A DNA stretch of 12,508 nucleotides from Magnetospirillum sp. (GTDB taxonomy: Bacteria > Pseudomonadota > Alphaproteobacteria > Rhodospirillales > Magnetospirillaceae), in the NCBI GenBank assembly GCA_020217035.1, contig JAIWOG010000286.1:1-12508 (forward strand), given 5' to 3'. Shown here one piece after another: positions 4,401 to 12,508 of this stretch. Below the pieces are notes generated by a model. The model saw nothing but the letters and a program-made list of their open reading frames with translations, made no database searches and was not told the DNA's origin. The stretch's first letter is position 1, and each line of letters begins with the position of its first letter. The translations under genes were made by a program, and so were the position numbers.

Positions 4401-4624
4401 TCCGCCAAGCCGTGCTGGATTCGGGGGCGACCCGTTTCAAGCCCATCGTGTTAACGGCTGCGGCGGCGATGATCGGCGCCGCCTTCATCCTGGCCGATCC
4501 CATCTTCCAGGGTCTGGCCATCAGCCTGGTCTTCGGCTTGGCGTCGTCCACCGCGCTGACGCTTCTGGTCATCCCGGCGCTTTACGTTTGGCTGCGCGAC
4601 GACGGGCGGGAATTGGGGGATTAG
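1466..4624 (+). CDS. RND efflux transporter permease subunit (AcrB/HAE-like inner-membrane pump)
   Basis: This protein has about 1052 residues from the ATG at 1466, the normal RND size. It has the duplicated plan: a first membrane helix near residues 15-37, a large periplasmic loop, a helix bundle (about 345-500), a second loop, and a C-terminal bundle (about 890-1045). The proton-relay pair in helix 4 is intact (D413-D414 in GILVDDAIVVVEN, as AcrB D407/D408). In helix 10 the AcrB Lys940 position appears to be Arg (R960 in GIIVRNSILLVDF). The substrate cannot be read from the sequence. In-frame GTG codons at 1454 and 1457 overlap the adaptor's TGA. I prefer ATG 1466 because it begins the conserved MKLGLSGAIAKHF region, and GGTGAG (1456-1461) can act as its ribosome-binding site. 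The stop TAG overlaps the TAA of the convergent gene. Confidence 0.92.
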   Translation: MKLGLSGAIAKHFIKSPLTPLLLLASLAVGFIALSALPREEEPQISVPMVDIMVSANGLKAVDAVELVTKPLEDIVKGIDAVEHVYSNTYDDQVVVTARFDVGTSEDAAILRVHEQVRANIHALPIGIPEPLIVGRGINDVAILVLTLAPKPEAAERWNDNALYNLAEELRHELVKVDNVGQSDIVGGAKDQIRVEPDPEALALYGITLNQLVDKVENANRSFMVGAVREAGRHLPVVGGQTLNGVPDIGNLLLASHDGRPVYVKDVATVVPGGAEPEARAWHIENGQAVPAVSLSMAKRAGANAVLVAEDILTRLDQVKGRLIPDTVSVTVTRNYGETASDKADELLFHLALATISIVILITWALGWREGLVVALVVPTTILLTLFASHLMGYTINRVSLFALIFSIGILVDDAIVVVENIVRRWQMDKTSDRTEVAVWAVAEVGNPTIVATLTIVAALLPMMFVSGLMGPYMSPIPANASSAMMFSFFVAVIITPWLLVKIAGRSRQGAVEHHGHADRLGDIYRRFARPLLVGRAPSKKLLLGVTIATFAAMSMFGFKAVTVKLLPFDNKSEIQVVVDLPEGSTLEDTERVLMNAAKRLSDLPELTSIQAHAGTAAPFNFNGLVRHYYLRSSPEMGDLQLNLTSRHDRSRPSHDIALDVRQRLAGVAKPDGTAIRVVEVPPGPPVMSTLLAEIYGPDAETRRQTAQQVRDAFAKVDFVVDIDDTLSHPWQRLRVSIDQERLEFFGVEQQAVYDTIQALMGGVRVGYSHRGQGANPKEIVIALAKADKHPGELLATTPVPSVRGVVELGDVVNVSYEPASAPIFRRDGRFAEMVQAELAGRYEAPIYGMFAVEDHLPETIGVKYHGQPLDETTPTLLWDGEWEITYVTFRDMGAAFGVAIIGIYLLVVAQFGSFRLPLVILVPVPLTLIGIVIGHMLFAAPFTATSMIGFIALAGIIVRNSILLVDFIRHRLGEGASIRQAVLDSGATRFKPIVLTAAAAMIGAAFILADPIFQGLAISLVFGLASSTALTLLVIPALYVWLRDDGRELGD

Positions 4625-5409
4625 TCCCGACCGATGACCAGCTTGCGCCCGGGCTGGGCGGGACAATATTTGTCGCCCACACCCTTGACGGTCAGGCTGG
4701 CCGAGAACATGCGCGGGTCGCAGGAATTGTCGGCGAACATGTCGTAATGGCACGGAATGGCCAGGCGGGGGTTGACCCGCTTGGCCAGTTCGGCGGCGTC
4801 CCAGTGCGACAGATTGGCGTAACCGCCATTGATCGGACAGGCCATGGCGTCAGGTTGATGCATTGCCCCCGATTCGGCCAGAAGGTCACACCAGGCGGTG
4901 TCGCCGGTAATCCAGAATTTCGGCCCGTCATCCACTTCGACGACAAAGCCCATATGGGTCAGGTCCGAGGTGTCGGTGGGCAGCGCGAAAGTCCCATGCA
5001 GGCGGATATCGCCCAATTCCACCACGTCGCCGGGCCAGGTGGTGCGACATTGGTCGGCGCTGGCCCCGGCCTGGGCGAAGACGGCTTGCGTCTGCGCCGG
5101 CCCCAGGAACTGACCGATCCGCCCCGCCTGACAGGCCGGGCACAAGCTGGCGGGATCGGCATGGTCCTTGTGCGAATGGGTGCAGGCCAACAGATCGGCC
5201 CGCAGGTGTTCGGGGGCGATCAGCACCGGCACCTGACGGCGCAAATCCAGCCCGCGCCGCGACGGATGGCAAGAATCGGTCAAATAGGGATCGACCACCA
5301 AAATGCGGCCAGCAGGGGATTTGACCACCCAGCCGTTCTGGCCCAGGAACCACACCGCCATGGTCTTGCGGTCTGGGGTGGTGGCGTCGATTTCGTCTAG
5401 CAAAGTCAT
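4621..5409 (-). CDS. UlaG-like metallo-beta-lactamase-fold hydrolase
   Basis: This is a 262-residue cytosolic metal-dependent hydrolase. The MBL motif H78-S-H80-K-D82-H83 (CTHSHKDHAD) is intact. Later ligands look present as D170 in FWITGDT and H221 in IPCHYDMF. The N-terminal VWFLGQNGWVVKSPAGRILV strand pair and the P-x-H-Y-D/G-x-F ending resemble the UlaG (L-ascorbate-6-phosphate lactonase) branch. No ula sugar-uptake genes are nearby, so the substrate is unknown and the lactonase activity should not be assumed. The frame stays open upstream to 5847, but that region is antisense to the flavoprotein gene. The family-like N-terminus starts at ATG 5409 (alternative ATG 5427, adding six residues). 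Neither start has a clear Shine-Dalgarno. It is divergent from the flavoprotein gene across 76 bases and convergent with the RND pump. Confidence 0.85.
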   Translation of the reverse strand: MTLLDEIDATTPDRKTMAVWFLGQNGWVVKSPAGRILVVDPYLTDSCHPSRRGLDLRRQVPVLIAPEHLRADLLACTHSHKDHADPASLCPACQAGRIGQFLGPAQTQAVFAQAGASADQCRTTWPGDVVELGDIRLHGTFALPTDTSDLTHMGFVVEVDDGPKFWITGDTAWCDLLAESGAMHQPDAMACPINGGYANLSHWDAAELAKRVNPRLAIPCHYDMFADNSCDPRMFSASLTVKGVGDKYCPAQPGRKLVIGRD

Positions 5410-5485: not shown

Positions 5486-6667
5486 ATGGAAGACATCGCG
5501 ATCATCGGCGCCGGGCCGGCCGGATTGATGGCGGCCCAGGCGGCGGCGGAAGCCGGCTGCCGGGTGGCGCTGTACGATTCCCTGCCCCAGCCCGCCCGCA
5601 AGTTCCTGCGGGCCGGCATCGGCGGCTTGAACCTGACCCATTCCGAACCGTTCGAGTCTTTTCTGGGCCGCTTCGGCGATGCCGCCCCCATCCTGGACCC
5701 CCTGCTGCGCGCTTTCGCCCCGGATCGGGTGCGGCAATGGGCCGCCGAACTGGGCTCGGAAACCTTCGTCGGCTCGTCGGGCCGGGTGTTCCCCACCGAC
5801 TTCAAGGCCGCGCCTTTGCTGCGTTCCTGGCTGCGGCATCTGGACAAGCTGGGGGTGCGCTTTCATCCCCGCCATCGCTGGTTGGGCTGGAACGACCAGG
5901 GCGGTTTGCGTTTCGCCACCCCGGATGGCGAAAACACCGTCACCGCCCGCGCCACCATCTTGGCCTTGGGCGGCGCATCCTGGCCCAAACTGGGCTCGGA
6001 CGGCACTTGGATCGCTTTTTTCCCGCCCCTGTCCCTGGCGCCATTCCGCCCGACCAATTGCGGCTTCGAGGTGGATTGGAGCCCCCATTTCCGCGACCGC
6101 TTCGCCGGCACCCCGGTCAAGGCGGTGGGCTTGGCCTTTGGCGAGCGCCGTTTCAAGGGCGAATTCGTCGTCACCCGCCATGGAATCGAAGGCAGCGCCA
6201 TCTATGCCCTGTCAGCCCCCTTGCGCGACGCCATCGAAGCCGATGGCCAAGCCATCTTGCATCTGGACCTGAAGCCCGACTGGGACACCGAGAAACTGGC
6301 CGCCGCCCTGGCCAAACCACGCGGCAGCCGCAGCGTTTCCAACCATCTGGAACGCCAAATCGGGATCAAGGGCGTCCTGGCCGGACTGGCCCGCGAAGGG
6401 CTGCTCGCCGAAGACATGCTGAAAGCCCAGGCGTTGAAAGCGGTGCCGGTGCGGCTGACACGCCCCCGCCCGCTAGCGGAAGCCATCAGCACTGCGGGAG
6501 GTTTACGTTTTGATGCGCTCACCCCCGACTTGATGCTGAAAGACCGCCCCGGCGCCTTCGTCGCCGGCGAAATGCTGGATTGGGAAGCCCCCACCGGCGG
6601 CTATCTGCTGACGGCCTGCTTCGCCACCGGCTGGGCGGCGGGCCAAGCCGCCGCCAACTGGATTTAA
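5486..6667 (+). CDS. BaiN/HI0933-family FAD-dependent oxidoreductase, PP_4765 subgroup
   Basis: This is a 393-residue flavoprotein. The N-terminal Rossmann motif GAGPAG (residues 8-13) after IAII binds the FAD ADP moiety. The RKFLRAGIGGLNLTHSE block (38-54) is the family's flavin-contact signature in the variant form of the PP_4765 subgroup (the canonical branch has GGGRCNxTN). The LGGASWPKLGSDGTW segment (161-175) and the C-terminal GGYLLTACFATGWAAGQAAA (371-390) are also diagnostic. Family members are annotated as aminoacetone oxidase-like or BaiN-like reductases, but the physiological reaction of this subgroup is not established. ATG 5486 is preferred over an in-frame GTG at 5480: it gives the standard short N-terminus and has a weak AAGAAG ribosome site upstream. 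No partner gene is co-transcribed. Its stop overlaps that of the convergent multidomain gene. Confidence 0.88.
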   Translation: MEDIAIIGAGPAGLMAAQAAAEAGCRVALYDSLPQPARKFLRAGIGGLNLTHSEPFESFLGRFGDAAPILDPLLRAFAPDRVRQWAAELGSETFVGSSGRVFPTDFKAAPLLRSWLRHLDKLGVRFHPRHRWLGWNDQGGLRFATPDGENTVTARATILALGGASWPKLGSDGTWIAFFPPLSLAPFRPTNCGFEVDWSPHFRDRFAGTPVKAVGLAFGERRFKGEFVVTRHGIEGSAIYALSAPLRDAIEADGQAILHLDLKPDWDTEKLAAALAKPRGSRSVSNHLERQIGIKGVLAGLAREGLLAEDMLKAQALKAVPVRLTRPRPLAEAISTAGGLRFDALTPDLMLKDRPGAFVAGEMLDWEAPTGGYLLTACFATGWAAGQAAANWI

Positions 6668-9282
6668 TAGACGCCCTTATCGTTCAAGAACCGGGTATAG
6701 CCCTTGTCCTCGACGACGATGTGGCCGACCAGCCAATCCTGCAAGAAGGCCAGGAAATCGATCTGGGTGGGCTCGACGCTGTCCTTGAAGGTCTGGCGCA
6801 TCACCTGCAACTGCTCGGACAACAGCGCGTGATGGGCGCGGTGCGCTTCGGTTTCCGGATAGGCGTGGCGCAGCATCAGCGCCTCTTCCTCGCCGAAATG
6901 GTAATGGGCGTATTCGGCCATGGCGTCGAACAAGGGCACGATTTCCGGGCCGCTGATGCCGGCCTTGATGGCGTCCAGGATGGCATTGGCCTGTTCGAAC
7001 ATGCGGCGGTGCTGGGTGTCCAAACGCAGCACGTCGACGCGGTACTCCTCGCGCCAATGCAGACGGCCGCCATTGGTGCCGTGCTCGCTTTCGAAGATGG
7101 ATGTCATGCGGCGGCCCGCCGTTTCGAACAGCTTCCAGCGCACCGAGGGGATGCCGGCCAAAAGCCCGGCGGGAACCAGGAACACCTCGGTGGCGGTCAA
7201 CGCCTTCAGGCGGAACATGGACGGTGTCCAGAAGATGGACAATTCCTCGCCGAAGAAGTCGCCGAAGCGCAGCACTTCCACCTGTTGCTCGCCCAAATAG
7301 CGGCCCACTTGGCCGGTGACCACAAGGGCCACCGATTCGGGGCCGATGTCGATGGTCTCGCCCTCGGGGATACGCGACAGCGTCATCTCCTTGGCGATGC
7401 GGTTCAGCGTGCGGGTGGACACCACCTCGCCGAACAGCCAGGTGCGTTGCAGGAACTGGCGGTTCTCGAAGATGCGGGTAATCGACGCCGACAGGTCGTT
7501 GCGGCGGACGAAATCCTGGTACAGGCTGGACGGAATGCGCAGCGCCTTGACGAAGCCGATGGCGCGGTAGGTTTCGGTCACCGGGGCCTCGAACAGCGCG
7601 AACAACTCGCCGATCATGGCGCCGGCCGACAGCACCGACCGGGCGCCGCCGTCGATGTGCAGGGCCTCGATGCTGCCCGACAGCAGAAGATAGATGTTTT
7701 CGGTGGGCCGGCGTTCCTTGACCAGGATGGTGCCGGGATTGAAGGTGCTGACCGGGTTGTTCAGCAGCACCCGCAATTGGTGGTGGGCGATGTCGGGGAA
7801 ATAGGCCTGCAACAACTCGAAGGCCGAGCGCCAGATGAAGTCGTGGTTGGACGGGATCAGCACATCGACGTTGCCGAACGACGCGGTGGAACCGATGGCC
7901 TTTTGCGCCAGGGTGTGCTTGCCCGAAGTGTGGGCCAGGATCAGCCGTCCCGAGCGGTCGTCGCGGAAGTCGTAGGCGTCGCCATGGATCATGCCGCCGC
8001 CCACGTCCACCTTCTTGATGTTGGCGGGAAGCGCATAGGACGCCGCCACCGCCTGATACATGGCTTTCGAGATTCCCGGCTCCTCGGCGTCGTCGGTGAC
8101 GAAGCCACGCAGCACTTCCAGGCGGCAGATGTCGGCCCAGTGGGCATAGGACCGATAGCCGTCTTCCCAGGGTGCGCGGAACATGAACAAGGTGGTTTCC
8201 ACCGGATGGGGGGAAAACAACGGCCGCACTTCCAGGCCGTCGATCTCGTTCCATTCGCCTTCCACCAGATCGTGGCATTCGAAGTAATCGGCGAAGGCCG
8301 AAGGCTCGATGGACAGCAGGGCCGCCATCTTGCGGGCCACCGAGGCGCGGACCAGCGGCGTGGCGAAATACTTGATGCGATGGTCGGCGCGGATCAGCGT
8401 GGTCAGGCCGGAAAAGTGGTCGTCGTGGGAATGGGTATGGAAGATGCCGTCGATCTCGTTCACGCCGATGCCCAGGGCATCCAGGGTGAACAGGATGTTG
8501 GGTCCGGCGTCGATCAGGTAGACGCGGCCCTGGAACATCAGGATGGCGCCCATGCTGGGGCGGTTGATGTCCCAACCGTCGCCCTCGCCGGAATGCACCA
8601 CCGAGAAGTAATCCCGCTGCATGTTGTAGAAGCCCAGCGGATACGGGCATTCGTAGGTTTCGAACGGCGGCAGCGTCAGGTCGACGGTGACGCATTCGCC
8701 GCCGTGGCAAATCTCGAAGGTGTTCAAGCGCACCCGACGGATGGTGACGCCGTCCCTGATTTCGACCGGTTCGTTGTCGATATTCAGGGTATCAAGCAAT
8801 TCCTGGGGGTGGCGGATGCGGCCGAAGGCGAATTTCAGCTTCATCCGCATCAGGTCCTTGGCCTGCTGCGGGGTGGCGCCGGCTTCGACCAGTTCCTCTT
8901 CGTTGATCAGGCCGTAATTGCCGCGATAGATGTATTGCAGTTGGGCGCGGACCTGCTCGGCCGAACCGATCAGTAACGGCTTGGCCCCGGTGTTGCCGGG
9001 ATGGTCGGGAATGATCATGCCCTGGCGGTACAGCATCTGCAGCACCGGGAACTCGCCCAGATTGCTGAAGGTACCGTTCTGAACCATGACGTCGGACAAC
9101 AGGATGGCGTTCGGTCCGGTCTCGTAGGTGACGCCGTCGCGCTCGACCGTCGAGATCAAGCCGCGCTTCATCAGATGCTTCACCACGTCGGCTGGACAGC
9201 CGCACAAAATCCTGAGATTGGCTTTGGCGATTTCAACCCACCAGACACCGGTGGTCACCTCGGCCTTTTCAATAGAACCCAT
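6664..9282 (-). CDS. Multidomain protein: N-terminal unknown region, MBL-fold hydrolase, two cNMP-binding-like domains, C-terminal bacteriohemerythrin
   Basis: This 872-residue protein has no signal peptide or membrane helix. Residues 1-200 match no family I recognise, but include a CGCP motif (27-30). Residues 205-480 are a metallo-beta-lactamase domain with H284, H286, D288 and H289 (THSHDDHFSG), H359 (SPHPVE), D384 (HWAD) and H451 (LILAHTSG), apparently a full two-metal site. About 505-610 and 625-735 are cyclic-nucleotide-binding-like beta barrels (SGSIEALHID...GEL; TGQVGRYL...GEE). Both lack the usual P-R-x-A/S phosphate-binding signature, so nucleotide binding may be lost or altered. 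About 741-865 is bacteriohemerythrin with H758, H795, E799, H814, H818, H854 and D859, the whole di-iron ligand set. Hemerythrins bind O2 reversibly, so an O2- or redox-responsive hydrolase is a reasonable inference. The ATG has GGGGA six bases upstream, and a promoter lies at 9311-9339. The gene is monocistronic. Confidence 0.85.
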   Translation of the reverse strand: MGSIEKAEVTTGVWWVEIAKANLRILCGCPADVVKHLMKRGLISTVERDGVTYETGPNAILLSDVMVQNGTFSNLGEFPVLQMLYRQGMIIPDHPGNTGAKPLLIGSAEQVRAQLQYIYRGNYGLINEEELVEAGATPQQAKDLMRMKLKFAFGRIRHPQELLDTLNIDNEPVEIRDGVTIRRVRLNTFEICHGGECVTVDLTLPPFETYECPYPLGFYNMQRDYFSVVHSGEGDGWDINRPSMGAILMFQGRVYLIDAGPNILFTLDALGIGVNEIDGIFHTHSHDDHFSGLTTLIRADHRIKYFATPLVRASVARKMAALLSIEPSAFADYFECHDLVEGEWNEIDGLEVRPLFSPHPVETTLFMFRAPWEDGYRSYAHWADICRLEVLRGFVTDDAEEPGISKAMYQAVAASYALPANIKKVDVGGGMIHGDAYDFRDDRSGRLILAHTSGKHTLAQKAIGSTASFGNVDVLIPSNHDFIWRSAFELLQAYFPDIAHHQLRVLLNNPVSTFNPGTILVKERRPTENIYLLLSGSIEALHIDGGARSVLSAGAMIGELFALFEAPVTETYRAIGFVKALRIPSSLYQDFVRRNDLSASITRIFENRQFLQRTWLFGEVVSTRTLNRIAKEMTLSRIPEGETIDIGPESVALVVTGQVGRYLGEQQVEVLRFGDFFGEELSIFWTPSMFRLKALTATEVFLVPAGLLAGIPSVRWKLFETAGRRMTSIFESEHGTNGGRLHWREEYRVDVLRLDTQHRRMFEQANAILDAIKAGISGPEIVPLFDAMAEYAHYHFGEEEALMLRHAYPETEAHRAHHALLSEQLQVMRQTFKDSVEPTQIDFLAFLQDWLVGHIVVEDKGYTRFLNDKGVY

Positions 9283-9463: not shown

Positions 9464-9637
9464 ATGGCTACCACCCCCGCTGACCACGTCATCCGTCTTC
9501 TGGCCCTTGGCGCCCTTTATGGGGCCGCGATCGCCATCGCCGTGGTGTTTTCCCCGGCCAACGGCTTCCTGCCGCCGGAAAAGCTGAACAACCTGATCGG
9601 CATGAACAGCCAAGCCCCGGTCAGGCTTCCCCGGTAA
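9464..9637 (+). CDS. Small single-pass membrane protein, 57 residues, hypothetical
   Basis: This short frame runs MATTPADHVIRLLALGALYG... to ...APVRLPR and is not assigned to a family. Residues about 10-29 form one hydrophobic helix (LLALGALYGAAIAIAVVF). A polar tail follows, with PPEKLNNLIG and an Arg-containing end, suggesting a single membrane anchor. Third codon positions are mostly G or C, as in neighbouring genes, and a good promoter lies just upstream, so it is probably expressed. The ribosome site is weak: GGTAAG at 9447-9452 is about 11 bases from the start. The last 17 bases overlap the convergent 3' end of glk. It could regulate or anchor something, but nothing in the sequence shows what. 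Confidence 0.55.
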   Translation: MATTPADHVIRLLALGALYGAAIAIAVVFSPANGFLPPEKLNNLIGMNSQAPVRLPR

Positions 9638-10580
9638 GCGCCGCCAAGCCGGCGAAGGCCGGCTCGGGATGGATGACCAGCCAGGTGGGAATAGCGGACA
9701 GATAACCGGCGAACCGTCCCTTGGCTTCGAAACGTCGGCGGAAGTCCGAGGCGAAAAACGCCTGGGCCATGCGCGGCAGGATGCCGCCGGCCACATAGAC
9801 ACCGCCCCGCGCCCCCAAGCTCAGCGCCAGGTTGCCCGCCACCGTGCCCAGCATGGCGAAGAACAGGGTCAACGCCTGCCGACACAGCGGGCACGACCCG
9901 TCCAAACCGTGGCTGGACACCGCCTCGGCGGTGGAATAGGACGCAGGCTGCCCCTGCACCGCCGCCACCGCTTCGTACAAGTTCAGCAAGCCCGGCCCCG
10001 ACAGCACCCGTTCGGCGGACACATGACCGAAACGGCGCCGCAGATGGGCCAGCACCTGGGCCTCGGTGTCGTCGGTGGCGGCCATCGTGACGTGCCCACC
10101 CTCGGTGGAAAGCGCGATCCAGCGTCCCAAGGAATCGGCCACCAGCCCCGACACCCCCAAACCGGTCCCCGGCCCCAGTACGGCGATGGGGGCGCCCGCC
10201 ACCGGCTCGGCGCCACCCAGTTTCATCAGATGGTTGGCCGCCAAGTGGGGCACCGACAGGGCCGTGGCGGTGAAATCGTTGACCACCTTCAACTCGGACA
10301 AGCCCAATTGCCGCTGCACATGATGGGCGGAAAAACGCCAGGATGAATTGGTCATCTCGATCATGTCGCCGGTCACCGGCGAAGCGACGGCGAAGGCGCC
10401 ACGCACCGGCCTGGCACCGCCGTTCGCTGCCAGGAACGCCTTGGCGGCATCGTCGGGACCGGCGAAGTCGGCGCATTGCATGACCATGTCGGGACCGATG
10501 GCGCCCGTTTCGTCCACCAGGGCGAAGCGGACGTTGGTGCCGCCCATGTCGGCGATCAGCGACAGCGGACGGACGGTCAT
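9621..10580 (-). CDS. glk: Glucokinase (ATP-dependent, proteobacterial Glk type)
   Basis: This 319-residue cytosolic kinase phosphorylates glucose to glucose-6-phosphate, feeding glycolysis and, through glucose-1-phosphate, glycogen synthesis. The N-terminal phosphate loop is ADMGGTNVRFAL (10-21). The catalytic N101-D102-F103 is in VVNDFTATAL, the nucleotide loop LGPGTGLGVS is at 135-144, the glucose-binding STEGGHVT at 158-165 includes E160 and H163, and the adenosine motif GGVYVAGGILPRM is near 259-271. Length is normal for the family (about 320). ATG 10580 overlaps the glgA TGA as ATGA, so glk is the second gene of a glgA-glk operon and is probably translated by reinitiation. The frame stays open further upstream inside glgA, but the family N-terminus begins here. 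The 3' end overlaps the convergent small ORF. Confidence 0.95.
   Translation of the reverse strand: MTVRPLSLIADMGGTNVRFALVDETGAIGPDMVMQCADFAGPDDAAKAFLAANGGARPVRGAFAVASPVTGDMIEMTNSSWRFSAHHVQRQLGLSELKVVNDFTATALSVPHLAANHLMKLGGAEPVAGAPIAVLGPGTGLGVSGLVADSLGRWIALSTEGGHVTMAATDDTEAQVLAHLRRRFGHVSAERVLSGPGLLNLYEAVAAVQGQPASYSTAEAVSSHGLDGSCPLCRQALTLFFAMLGTVAGNLALSLGARGGVYVAGGILPRMAQAFFASDFRRRFEAKGRFAGYLSAIPTWLVIHPEPAFAGLAALTGEA
9647..9664. repeat. Perfect hairpin-forming inverted repeat in the 3' end of glk
   Basis: AGCCGGC (9647-9653), loop GAAG, then GCCGGCT (9658-9664) gives a perfect 7-bp stem. It starts ten bases past the stop of the small membrane ORF, where a terminator would be expected, but there is no T tract. 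It lies within glk codons for FAGLA, so it may be a by-product of Ala/Gly-rich coding. A role in 3' end formation for the short transcript is possible but unproven. Confidence 0.35.
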
Positions 10581-12037
10581 GGGGTCACCATGCCGTCGTA
10601 GAGCTGCCCATAACGCACGGCCGAGCGGGACCAACTGAAATCCTGAGCCATGCCGGTGGTTTGGATGCGCTGCCATTGGTCCTTGTTGGCGAAGCTGGCG
10701 ATGGCGCGTTCGACGCACCATTGGAAGGCGCCGGCATTGGCGTGCTCGAAGACGAAACCGGTTCCGGTGCCGCTCATCAGCCCATCATAGCTGCAATCCA
10801 TCACCGTGTCGGCCAGACCGCCAGTGGCGTGGACCACCGGAACCGTGCCATAGCGCATGGCGTAGAACTGGGTCAGGCCGCAAGGTTCGAAACGCGACGG
10901 CATCAGCAGCATGTCGCCACCGCCCAACAGACGGTGGGCCAGTTCCTCGGAATAGCCGATGGTGACCGCGACGCGGCGCGGCGAGCCGTGAGCCGCCAGT
11001 TGGAAACCTTGTTCCAGGGCACGGTCACCCGCCCCCAGAACCGCCAGTTGCGCCCCCTGGCGCAGCAACGCCGGCAGGGTGGACAACACCATGTCCATGC
11101 CCTTCTGGTCGGCCAGACGGCTGATGATGACCATCAACGGCGCCTGCGAATCCGTTTCCAGACCCAAGGATTGCTGCAACGCCGCCTTGTTGGCGGCCTT
11201 GCCCGCGACGTAATCGGCGACGCCATAGGTCTTGGCCAGCAAGGAATCGTCGGACGGGTTCCACACCCGGTAATCGGCGCCGTTCAGGATGCCCGCCAGA
11301 TCGGCGGCCCGCCAGGACAGCACGCCTTCCATGCCGCAGCCGAAGGCCGACGACTGGATTTCGCGGGCATAACGCGGGCTGACGGTGGTCAGCTTGTCGG
11401 CATAGACCAGGCCGGATTTCAGGAACGACACGTCACCCCAATATTCCAATCCGTCCATGGTGAACATCGACCACGGCAGGCCCAGTCTTTCCAGGGTTTC
11501 GGCGGGGAATTGGCCCTGATAGGCGATGTTGTGGATGGTGAACACCGTCGCCGGGGGTTTTTCCACCGCCCACGCCTTCAGATAGGCGGGGGCCAGACCG
11601 GTCTGCCAGTCGTGGCAATGCAGGACTTGCGGCCGCCACTTGACCGGCGAGTCGTCGGTGCACAAACGTGCCGCCACCCACGACAGCAACCCGAAACGCA
11701 GCGGATTGTCGGCATAATCCAGCCCGTTCTCGTCCACATAGGGACCACCGACACGGTCATAAAGCGCCGGACAATCCAACAGCCACACCGGCACACCGGA
11801 ACCGGGCAGCTTGGCCGATATCAGCTTGGCCTCGCCGCCGACGCCCAGCGGGTCGCCGAAACTGGCGACCTGACGCTTGCCCTCGGCCTTGGCCAGGGCC
11901 TGCGGATAGCCCGGCAGCAGCACCCGCACCTCGTGCCCGGCTTCGATCAGCGCCGCTGGCAGCGCCCCCGCCACATCGGCCAGGCCGCCGGTTTTGACCA
12001 ACGGGAACACTTCGGACGCGGCGAACAGGATACGCAT
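10577..12037 (-). CDS. glgA: Glycogen synthase (ADP-glucose, GT5 family)
   Basis: This 486-residue cytosolic glycosyltransferase extends alpha-1,4-glucan from ADP-glucose. The start MRILFAASEVFPLVKTGGLA has the ADP-glucose-binding K-T-G-G-L (15-19). Further family blocks are LHCHDWQT (139-146), FTIHNIAYQG (166-175), ILNGADYRVWNP (250-261), ISRLADQKGMD (305-315) and the C-terminal SRFEPCGLTQFYAMRYGTVP (381-400) with catalytic Glu384. ATG 12037 has AAGGAAGG about eight bases upstream. The open frame continues to 12118 without family similarity. It is first in the glgA-glk operon and divergent from glgC, which makes its substrate, so the two arms of glycogen synthesis flank one regulatory gap. 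Length matches the usual 475-490. Confidence 0.96.
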   Translation of the reverse strand: MRILFAASEVFPLVKTGGLADVAGALPAALIEAGHEVRVLLPGYPQALAKAEGKRQVASFGDPLGVGGEAKLISAKLPGSGVPVWLLDCPALYDRVGGPYVDENGLDYADNPLRFGLLSWVAARLCTDDSPVKWRPQVLHCHDWQTGLAPAYLKAWAVEKPPATVFTIHNIAYQGQFPAETLERLGLPWSMFTMDGLEYWGDVSFLKSGLVYADKLTTVSPRYAREIQSSAFGCGMEGVLSWRAADLAGILNGADYRVWNPSDDSLLAKTYGVADYVAGKAANKAALQQSLGLETDSQAPLMVIISRLADQKGMDMVLSTLPALLRQGAQLAVLGAGDRALEQGFQLAAHGSPRRVAVTIGYSEELAHRLLGGGDMLLMPSRFEPCGLTQFYAMRYGTVPVVHATGGLADTVMDCSYDGLMSGTGTGFVFEHANAGAFQWCVERAIASFANKDQWQRIQTTGMAQDFSWSRSAVRYGQLYDGMVTP

Positions 12038-12063
12038 GGACGGGGCCTTCCTTGCTTGCTGGC

Positions 12064-12079
12064 GGCTTTGTCCAAAGCC
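12064..12079. promoter_or_regulatory. Perfect 16-bp inverted repeat upstream of glgA, operator or leader hairpin candidate
   Basis: GGCTTTG (12064-12070) and CAAAGCC (12073-12079) are exact reverse complements around TC. The element is 27-42 bases ahead of the glgA ATG in the 184-base gap shared with glgC. The short centre suits a protein-binding dyad such as a LacI- or TetR-family site. As RNA it could fold with a GUCC loop and six pairs. I found no convincing -35/-10 pair in this gap for either gene, so placement relative to a promoter is unknown. Confidence 0.4.
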
Positions 12080-12210
12080 TAACCCATGCGGGCGACGCGG
12101 GAAAGCCGCAACCGGCAAAGACCTGTCGCCGCCCCGGCGCGGTTGCCGCCGGACGCAATCTGTGGCACCGTCCGCCTGTCTTGCCTTGGGGGGGCATCAC
12201 CCATAACCCG

Positions 12211-12216
12211 GGAGGG
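12211..12216 (+). promoter_or_regulatory. Strong Shine-Dalgarno for glgC
   Basis: The sequence GGAGGGAGGAG (12211-12221) precedes the ATG at 12222. The first GGAGG gives the best spacing (six bases). The second copy is too close to the start. This purine run sets ATG 12222 as the start rather than the in-frame ATG at residue 10, which has no such site. Confidence 0.75.
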
Positions 12217-12221
12217 AGGAG

Positions 12222-12508
12222 ATGAGCGTGTCGCAGGATGGACAGCCCATGGATCTGGAAGTCAACCTTCGCCTGCGCCGCACGCTGGCGCTGGTGCTGG
12301 CCGGAGGCCGCGGCTCGCGCTTGAAGGCCCTGACCGACTGGCACGCCAAGCCCGCCGTACCGTTTGCCGGCAAGTTCCGCATCGTCGATTTCGCGCTGTC
12401 CAACTGCATCAATTCCGGCATCCGCCGCATCGGCGTGCTGACCCAGTACAAGGCGCACAGCCTGATCCAGCACATCCAGCGCGGCTGGGGCTTCCTGCGC
12501 GGCGAGTT
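12222..12508 (+). CDS. glgC: Glucose-1-phosphate adenylyltransferase (ADP-glucose pyrophosphorylase), N-terminal part, truncated by window end
   Basis: The first 95 codons are visible. The enzyme makes ADP-glucose from ATP and glucose-1-phosphate, the committed and usually allosterically controlled step of bacterial glycogen synthesis. The nucleotide-binding GGRGSRL motif (28-34, after LALVLA) is followed by [20 protein letters not shown] (43-62) and [20 protein letters not shown] (65-84), all diagnostic of GlgC. The catalytic Asp and sugar-binding regions lie beyond the window. The N-terminus carries about 19 residues before the fold, typical for alphaproteobacterial enzymes. It diverges from glgA-glk, so the pathway enzymes are split over two opposed transcripts that could share control in the 12038-12221 gap. 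Confidence 0.95.

What the first reader, a model, noticed from the sequence alone, without database searches (positions are those of the whole stretch)
6664..9282. One soluble protein joins a complete MBL hydrolase site, two cNMP-like domains and a complete bacteriohemerythrin
The 872-residue protein has an apparently full MBL ligand set (H284, H286, D288, H289, H359, D384, H451) and a full hemerythrin di-iron set (H758, H795, E799, H814, H818, H854, D859), separated by two cyclic-nucleotide-binding folds. Hemerythrins bind O2 at a non-heme di-iron centre. The MBL motif is of the hydrolase kind rather than the E-containing flavodiiron/ODP kind. The arrangement suggests an O2- or redox-gated hydrolase, perhaps acting on a nucleotide or other phosphodiester messenger. 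The substrate is unknown.
Basis: partly seen in the sequence, partly recalled or inferred. Interest (0 to 1): 0.8.

Follow-up and report, generated by a model that had tools for sequence, protein, structure and literature searches.

The report
Oxygen sensor fused to phosphodiesterase-like enzyme
This is a real bacterial protein in which an oxygen-binding iron domain sits on the end of an enzyme body that looks built to cut a signalling molecule, and relatives of the same body carry other sensors instead, which suggests a little-studied way for bacteria to turn oxygen into an internal signal.

Summary
The 872-aa ORF (6664-9282, minus strand) is one gene, open throughout in 24 of 24 related loci, with complete MBL and hemerythrin ligand sets. 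(1) Residues 1-207 are predicted to be a second, metal-less MBL fold; the pseudo-MBL/MBL tandem superposes on human ELAC2. (2) Both cNMP-type domains lack the cyclic-phosphate-binding arginine, so they are probably not ordinary cAMP/cGMP sensors. (3) The same body occurs without hemerythrin, or with a receiver, a solute-binding domain or Cache-HAMP in front, so it behaves as an exchangeable output module with hemerythrin as one input. (4) The nearest solved fold is Apyc1, a cyclic-nucleotide phosphodiesterase, and the MBL-CNB-CNB order matches Dictyostelium GbpA/GbpB, cyclic-nucleotide-activated phosphodiesterases. Best reading: an O2/redox-gated, phosphodiesterase-type signalling enzyme; activity and substrate unproven. 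Most sampled genomes with a magnetosome marker domain also carry the body, but shared ancestry confounds this. New variant of a known kind; interest moderate to high.

The parts
6664..9282 (-). whole gene, 872-aa sensor-enzyme, ATG start, TAA stop
8662..9282 (-). residues 1-207: predicted degenerate (metal-less) MBL-fold domain; no Pfam hit
7852..8610 (-). residues 225-477: MBL domain with complete two-metal ligand set
8416..8439 (-). residues 282-289 HTHSHDDH, the HxHxDH motif (H284, H286, D288, H289)
8206..8208 (-). H359, third MBL motif
   Evidence: 121/121, 103/103
8131..8133 (-). D384, expected metal-bridging Asp of the MBL site
   Evidence: 121/121, 103/103
7930..7932 (-). H451, last MBL ligand
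   Evidence: 121/121, 102/103
7447..7782 (-). residues 501-612: first cNMP-binding-type domain; V568 in the place of the phosphate-binding Arg
7084..7446 (-). residues 613-733: second cNMP-binding-type domain; S688 in the place of the Arg
   Evidence: similar to the first by hhalign; weak solved-structure matches, best E 0.0032
6667..7071 (-). residues 738-872: bacteriohemerythrin domain with complete di-iron ligand set

Best explanation
The protein is a cytoplasmic signalling enzyme. A two-metal MBL site (residues 225-477), set against an inactive MBL-fold partner (1-207) as in long-form RNase Z, hydrolyses a phosphodiester, most likely a cyclic nucleotide-type messenger. The bacteriohemerythrin at the C-terminus reads O2 or redox through its di-iron centre and sets the activity through the two CNB domains, which act as an allosteric coupler rather than as normal cAMP/cGMP receptors. 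By analogy with the two tested hemerythrin enzymes in the review passages read, the reduced (diferrous) form is the more likely active state. Shown: gene, domains, ligand residues, conservation, different sensors on one body. Predicted: fold and tandem. Inferred: hydrolysis, substrate, gating and its sign.
Confidence: 0.55

Rival explanations
1. The enzyme is an O2- or redox-gated hydrolase of a non-phosphate substrate (thioester, sulfate ester, lactone or modified metabolite); the resemblance to phosphodiesterases is only the MBL fold.
For: The MBL fold is catalytically broad; PqqB and aryl sulfatase chains lie close in Z, and 8gyg 'Arysulfatase' is the best sequence-profile hit.
Against: The top three structural rows are all Apyc1 (23.0-23.4), with a GMP-bound MBL protein, 3md7, next (22.1); MBL plus two CNB domains is the order of known phosphodiesterases; signalling inputs on the same body.
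Confidence: 0.2
2. It is a ribonuclease: a long-form RNase Z-like enzyme that processes or decays RNA under O2 or redox control, with the pseudo-MBL as RNA-binding partner.
For: Model residues 1-477 align with human ELAC2 over 373 residues; the RNase Z profile matches the motif region (35.8 bits).
Against: Score far below the RNase Z cut-off of 292.95; the genome has another RNase Z-like gene at G000:C136 (45.7 and 32.7 bits in two pieces, also below cut-off); many relatives carry signalling inputs (a biased sample).
Confidence: 0.1
3. The hemerythrin is not a gate but an O2/iron store or scavenger that protects the metal site of the MBL, or uses the body only as a scaffold.
For: Hemerythrins abound in this genome: ten further matches to the hemerythrin part besides the paralogue; H814 is Q or N in two of 16 aligned proteins.
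Against: Relatives carry known input domains on the same body in place of hemerythrin, which fits a sensor better than a store.
Confidence: 0.1

Closest known systems
Dictyostelium GbpA and GbpB (type IIb cyclic-nucleotide phosphodiesterases)
   Same: MBL catalytic domain followed by two CNB domains, intracellular (PMC11988041, passages)
   Different: The passages describe no hemerythrin; they are activated by cyclic nucleotide, whereas both CNB domains here lack the phosphate-binding Arg. Sequences were not compared.
Apyc1 / class II MBL phosphodiesterases (YhfI, yeast PDE1)
   Different: Homodimers of one domain (and recalled); Pfam Apyc1 model only 19.4 bits against a cut-off of 50; no CNB or sensor domains
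Hemerythrin-coupled c-di-GMP enzymes VcBhr-DGC and Ferrovum Bhr-HD-GYP
   Same: A bacterial hemerythrin fused to a messenger enzyme and shown to set its activity (PMC8846402, passages)
   Different: Output domains are GGDEF or HD-GYP, not MBL; in Bhr-HD-GYP the hemerythrin is N-terminal, here C-terminal
Human ELAC2 (long-form RNase Z)
   Different: RNase Z model 35.8 bits against a cut-off of 292.95; CNB and hemerythrin domains added
DcrH hemerythrin domain (Desulfovibrio vulgaris)
   Same: C-terminal hemerythrin, 33% identity and rmsd 1.6 over 132 residues
   Different: DcrH is a chemotaxis receptor (PMC2556348, passages); here the partner is an enzyme

Membership tests
bacteriohemerythrin | NCBIfam NF033749 score over curated cut-off (84) | tested here: met
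   105.6 bits, residues 741-867
bacteriohemerythrin | seven di-iron ligands on a four-helix bundle | tested here: met
   all seven present; four helices, rmsd 1.6 to DcrH-Hr
bacteriohemerythrin | binds two Fe and reacts with O2 | not testable with these tools
   needs protein
metallo-beta-lactamase superfamily | HxHxDH plus H, D, H ligands on the MBL fold | tested here: met
flavodiiron / ODP-type MBL | HxExD first motif (recalled) | tested here: not met
   motif is HTHSHDDH
Apyc1 (PF23023) | score over Pfam cut-off (50) | tested here: not met
   19.4 bits, residues 247-305 only
RNase Z (TIGR02651) | score over curated cut-off (292.95) | tested here: not met
   35.8 bits, residues 241-298 only
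long-form RNase Z-like tandem | inactive MBL fold followed by active MBL, packed as in ELAC2 (that ELAC2's first half is inactive is recalled) | tested here: met
   on predicted models only; a sequence-profile comparison of the two halves found nothing
canonical cyclic-nucleotide-binding domain | Pfam PF00027 over cut-off | tested here: met
   56 bits for the whole protein, two stretches, best one 513-595
canonical cyclic-nucleotide-binding domain | Arg that binds the cyclic phosphate (recalled; in PRTAT of SthK) | tested here: not met
   V568 and S688 in the window; Arg in 5/103 and 9/103 of the wide set; in the close set of 121, position 688 is R in 14, and at 568 the six commonest letters, 118 of 121, do not include R
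GbpA/GbpB-type phosphodiesterase | MBL then two CNB domains in one chain | tested here: met
GbpA/GbpB-type phosphodiesterase | cyclic-nucleotide hydrolysis | not testable with these tools
   needs assay; GbpA/GbpB sequences were not fetched or compared
hemerythrin-coupled c-di-GMP enzymes | GGDEF or HD-GYP output domain | tested here: not met
   no such domain listed at E up to 1

The most novel reading that the evidence does not exclude
The pseudo-MBL/MBL/CNB/CNB body is an undescribed bacterial signal-output module, comparable in role to GGDEF or HD-GYP, that destroys a messenger of its own. Its non-canonical CNB domains bind something other than cAMP/cGMP (for example a nucleoside, as in kinetoplastid PKA-R). 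The module is a standing part of the O2-sensing network of magnetotactic and other microaerophilic bacteria, with the hemerythrin form as its direct O2 input.
Probability: 0.25. Interest if true: 0.85.

Novelty: new variant of a known kind. Interest (0 to 1): 0.62.

Why it matters
The hemerythrin sensors with a tested enzymatic output that I met in the review passages work through c-di-GMP. This family would add an O2-gated MBL phosphodiesterase to that short list, and a bacterial counterpart to the MBL-CNB-CNB phosphodiesterases of Dictyostelium. Because the same body carries a receiver, a solute-binding domain, Cache-HAMP or hemerythrin in different relatives, one assay on one body would help to explain a whole set of signalling proteins. 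The sampled link to a magnetosome marker makes it a candidate part of how magnetotactic bacteria handle O2, testable by knock-out in laboratory strains.

Tried and rejected
Two separate genes or a frameshift: rejected, the frame is open in 24 of 24 loci, L009 running to its contig end. Sequence homology between the N-terminal domain and the MBL: not found by hhalign (probability 0.2%), so the second-MBL claim rests on predicted structure alone. Conserved neighbours: among 27 loci compared, no gene family other than the body itself recurs in more than five; in 7 of those 27 my simple ORF picker chose another frame over the body, so that comparison is rough. Of the 24 named loci, 15 show no match to any of seven window neighbours, 8 have glk, glgA and glgC beside the gene and one more has glk and glgA; no operon partner is claimed. 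FNR-type box: 4 matches with up to 2 mismatches against 2.08 expected (36 of 200 shuffles reach 4); one, at 9593-9606 with 2 mismatches, lies upstream of the gene, too weak to claim. Defence system: only weak TIR/PycTIR hits through the CNB domain (E 0.0057 and 0.0083).

Literature: no paper in the held library has all of hemerythrin, metallo-beta-lactamase, cyclic nucleotide-binding and Magnetospirillum, of bacteriohemerythrin, metallo-beta-lactamase and domain architecture, or of hemerythrin, beta-lactamase and cyclic nucleotide. Search listings brought nothing on this architecture; a 3-of-5-term search led to the Dictyostelium review. PMC4919030 counts 56 hemerythrin architectures; its main text has no 'lactamase', 'cyclic nucleotide' or 'cNMP', but its figures and supplements, where this one may be drawn, were not seen. 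All papers used were seen as search listings and passages only: PMC4919030, PMC2556348, PMC12442639, PMC5088516, PMC9117128, PMC8846402, PMC5459824, PMC11988041. MGMSRv2_1306 (a CNB gene higher at low O2) was dropped, as the passage says it has no homologue in the other strains. The genome has 5 class III cyclase matches, so cNMPs are possible messengers, but this proves nothing.
Full report
The gene. The ORF at 6664-9282 on the minus strand encodes 872 residues from an ATG. Pfam and NCBIfam place an MBL domain, cNMP-binding-type stretches and a bacteriohemerythrin above their curated cut-offs. Twenty-four related loci were found in named genomes, 15 of them titled Magnetospirillum or Paramagnetospirillum; in all 24 the frame is open over the whole match, one (L009) reaching the end of its contig. 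An alignment of the window with 15 of those 24 shows all seven MBL ligands and six of seven hemerythrin ligands invariant; H814 is Q in L009 and N in L019. Across 121 proteins the MBL ligands are 121 of 121; in a more divergent set of 103 they are 103 of 103 except H451, 102.

The CNB domains. They match one another (hhalign probability 96.7%) and eukaryotic kinase regulatory subunits. Aligned to SthK, the Arg of the PRTAT motif falls on V568; in the second domain, in a weak alignment to a Plasmodium PKG, it falls on S688. In the set of 103, Arg is found at these places in 5 and 9 proteins, and E559 is kept in only 50, though in 121 of 121 of the closer set. Among the Foldseek hits are kinetoplastid PKA regulatory subunits described as cAMP-independent and solved with guanosine, so another ligand is possible; this is inference.

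The hemerythrin domain. Residues 738-872 superpose on DcrH-Hr with rmsd 1.6 over 132 residues and 33% identity; all seven ligands are present. Published work shows hemerythrin setting the activity of a diguanylate cyclase (VcBhr-DGC) and of an HD-GYP phosphodiesterase, both listed as O2-negative, the latter with no activity when oxidised (PMC8846402, passages). That is the basis for the guess that the reduced form is active here.

The body is an exchangeable output module. A search returned 3297 related proteins, 120 listed. At E up to 1e-30, 92 of 297 genomes sampled in the order and 56 of 398 in the phylum have the family. Many hits stop at residue about 726 and lack hemerythrin. Others carry a receiver or a SBP_bac_3 domain in front, or sCache-HAMP. 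Of 254 listed proteins from three searches, home-made profiles label 111 hemerythrin, 91 receiver (two with a doubtful second label), 25 solute-binding, 3 Cache-HAMP and 24 none (biased sample). P0135 (receiver) is 86% identical to P0157 (Cache-HAMP) over 76% of the latter. On a quick tree of 108 bodies the 37 hemerythrin forms need two changes, which fits one gain and one loss, and the 11 solute-binding forms need one. Two histidine-kinase genes lie next to a receiver form (L102). A GGDEF gene and a PAS-kinase gene flank a hemerythrin form in L110; L110 is taken to be P. magneticum AMB-1, because its contig length, 4,967,148, is that of the P. magneticum proteins. Otherwise neighbours are not conserved.

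A precedent for the order of domains. In Dictyostelium, GbpA and GbpB have an MBL catalytic domain followed by two CNB domains and hydrolyse cGMP or cAMP, activated by cyclic nucleotide (PMC11988041, passages). That is the same order as here, with hemerythrin added and the CNB arginines lost. I did not compare sequences. My reading is that the outer sensor has taken over the gating that cyclic nucleotide does in GbpA/B.

Membership. It is a bacteriohemerythrin-containing and MBL-fold protein by tested features. It is not a member of Apyc1 or RNase Z as modelled (scores far under cut-off), though its catalytic part may work like Apyc1. It works like the hemerythrin-coupled c-di-GMP enzymes but lacks their catalytic domains.

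An association worth testing. PF18509 (MCR, recalled as the magnetochrome domain of magnetosome proteins) was sought in samples drawn in the same way. In the phylum sample 49 of 52 genomes with it have the family, against 7 of 346 without. In the order sample it is 32 of 36 with a hit over cut-off against 60 of 261 without, or 33 of 42 against 59 of 255 if six weak hits are counted. Related genomes are counted as if independent, so the p-values mean little. By GTDB family in the order sample my hand count is 9 of 9 against 3 of 22, taking codes f1-f31 as the 31 families of the order. The window's own genome has no MCR hit. Source names put receiver forms in Desulfamplus magnetovallimortis and Candidatus Magnetobacterium casense too, but also in Desulfatibacillum aliphaticivorans, which as far as I recall is not magnetotactic.

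Verdict. The finding is real and richer than stated: an O2/redox-sensing member of a family with one constant enzyme body and several inputs. Phosphodiesterase activity is likely but unproven. Parts of it are known separately; the combination was not met in the searches.

Noticed in passing
G handles: The enzyme body co-occurs with the magnetochrome domain PF18509 (name recalled): 49 of 52 MCR-positive genomes in the phylum sample and 32 of 36 (hits over cut-off) in the order sample; confounded by shared ancestry.
   Followed up: partly
L092 (G284:C52): A hemerythrin form and a hemerythrin-less form of the body lie next to each other on one strand, which would allow a mixed dimer.
   Followed up: no
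L103:5546-11478: In a genome taken to be AMB-1 the hemerythrin-less body directly follows, or by the mechanical start overlaps by 46 bases, an upstream TPR-CHAT gene.
   Followed up: no
L026 (G000:C188): The window's genome has a second hemerythrin form, 54% identical, plus ten other matches to the hemerythrin part, one with a stop inside.
   Followed up: partly
window 6664-6667: The gene and the convergent HI0933-like flavoprotein gene overlap by four bases, TTAA, that hold both TAA stops.
   Followed up: no
window 4621-5400 (-): A second, small MBL hydrolase (Lactamase_B_2/B_3) lies next to what look like RND efflux genes (the RND name is read from the sequence).
   Followed up: no
window 9621-12506: Glucokinase and glycogen/starch synthase genes and what looks like the start of glgC lie upstream; all three lie beside the gene in 8 of 24 related loci.
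   Followed up: partly
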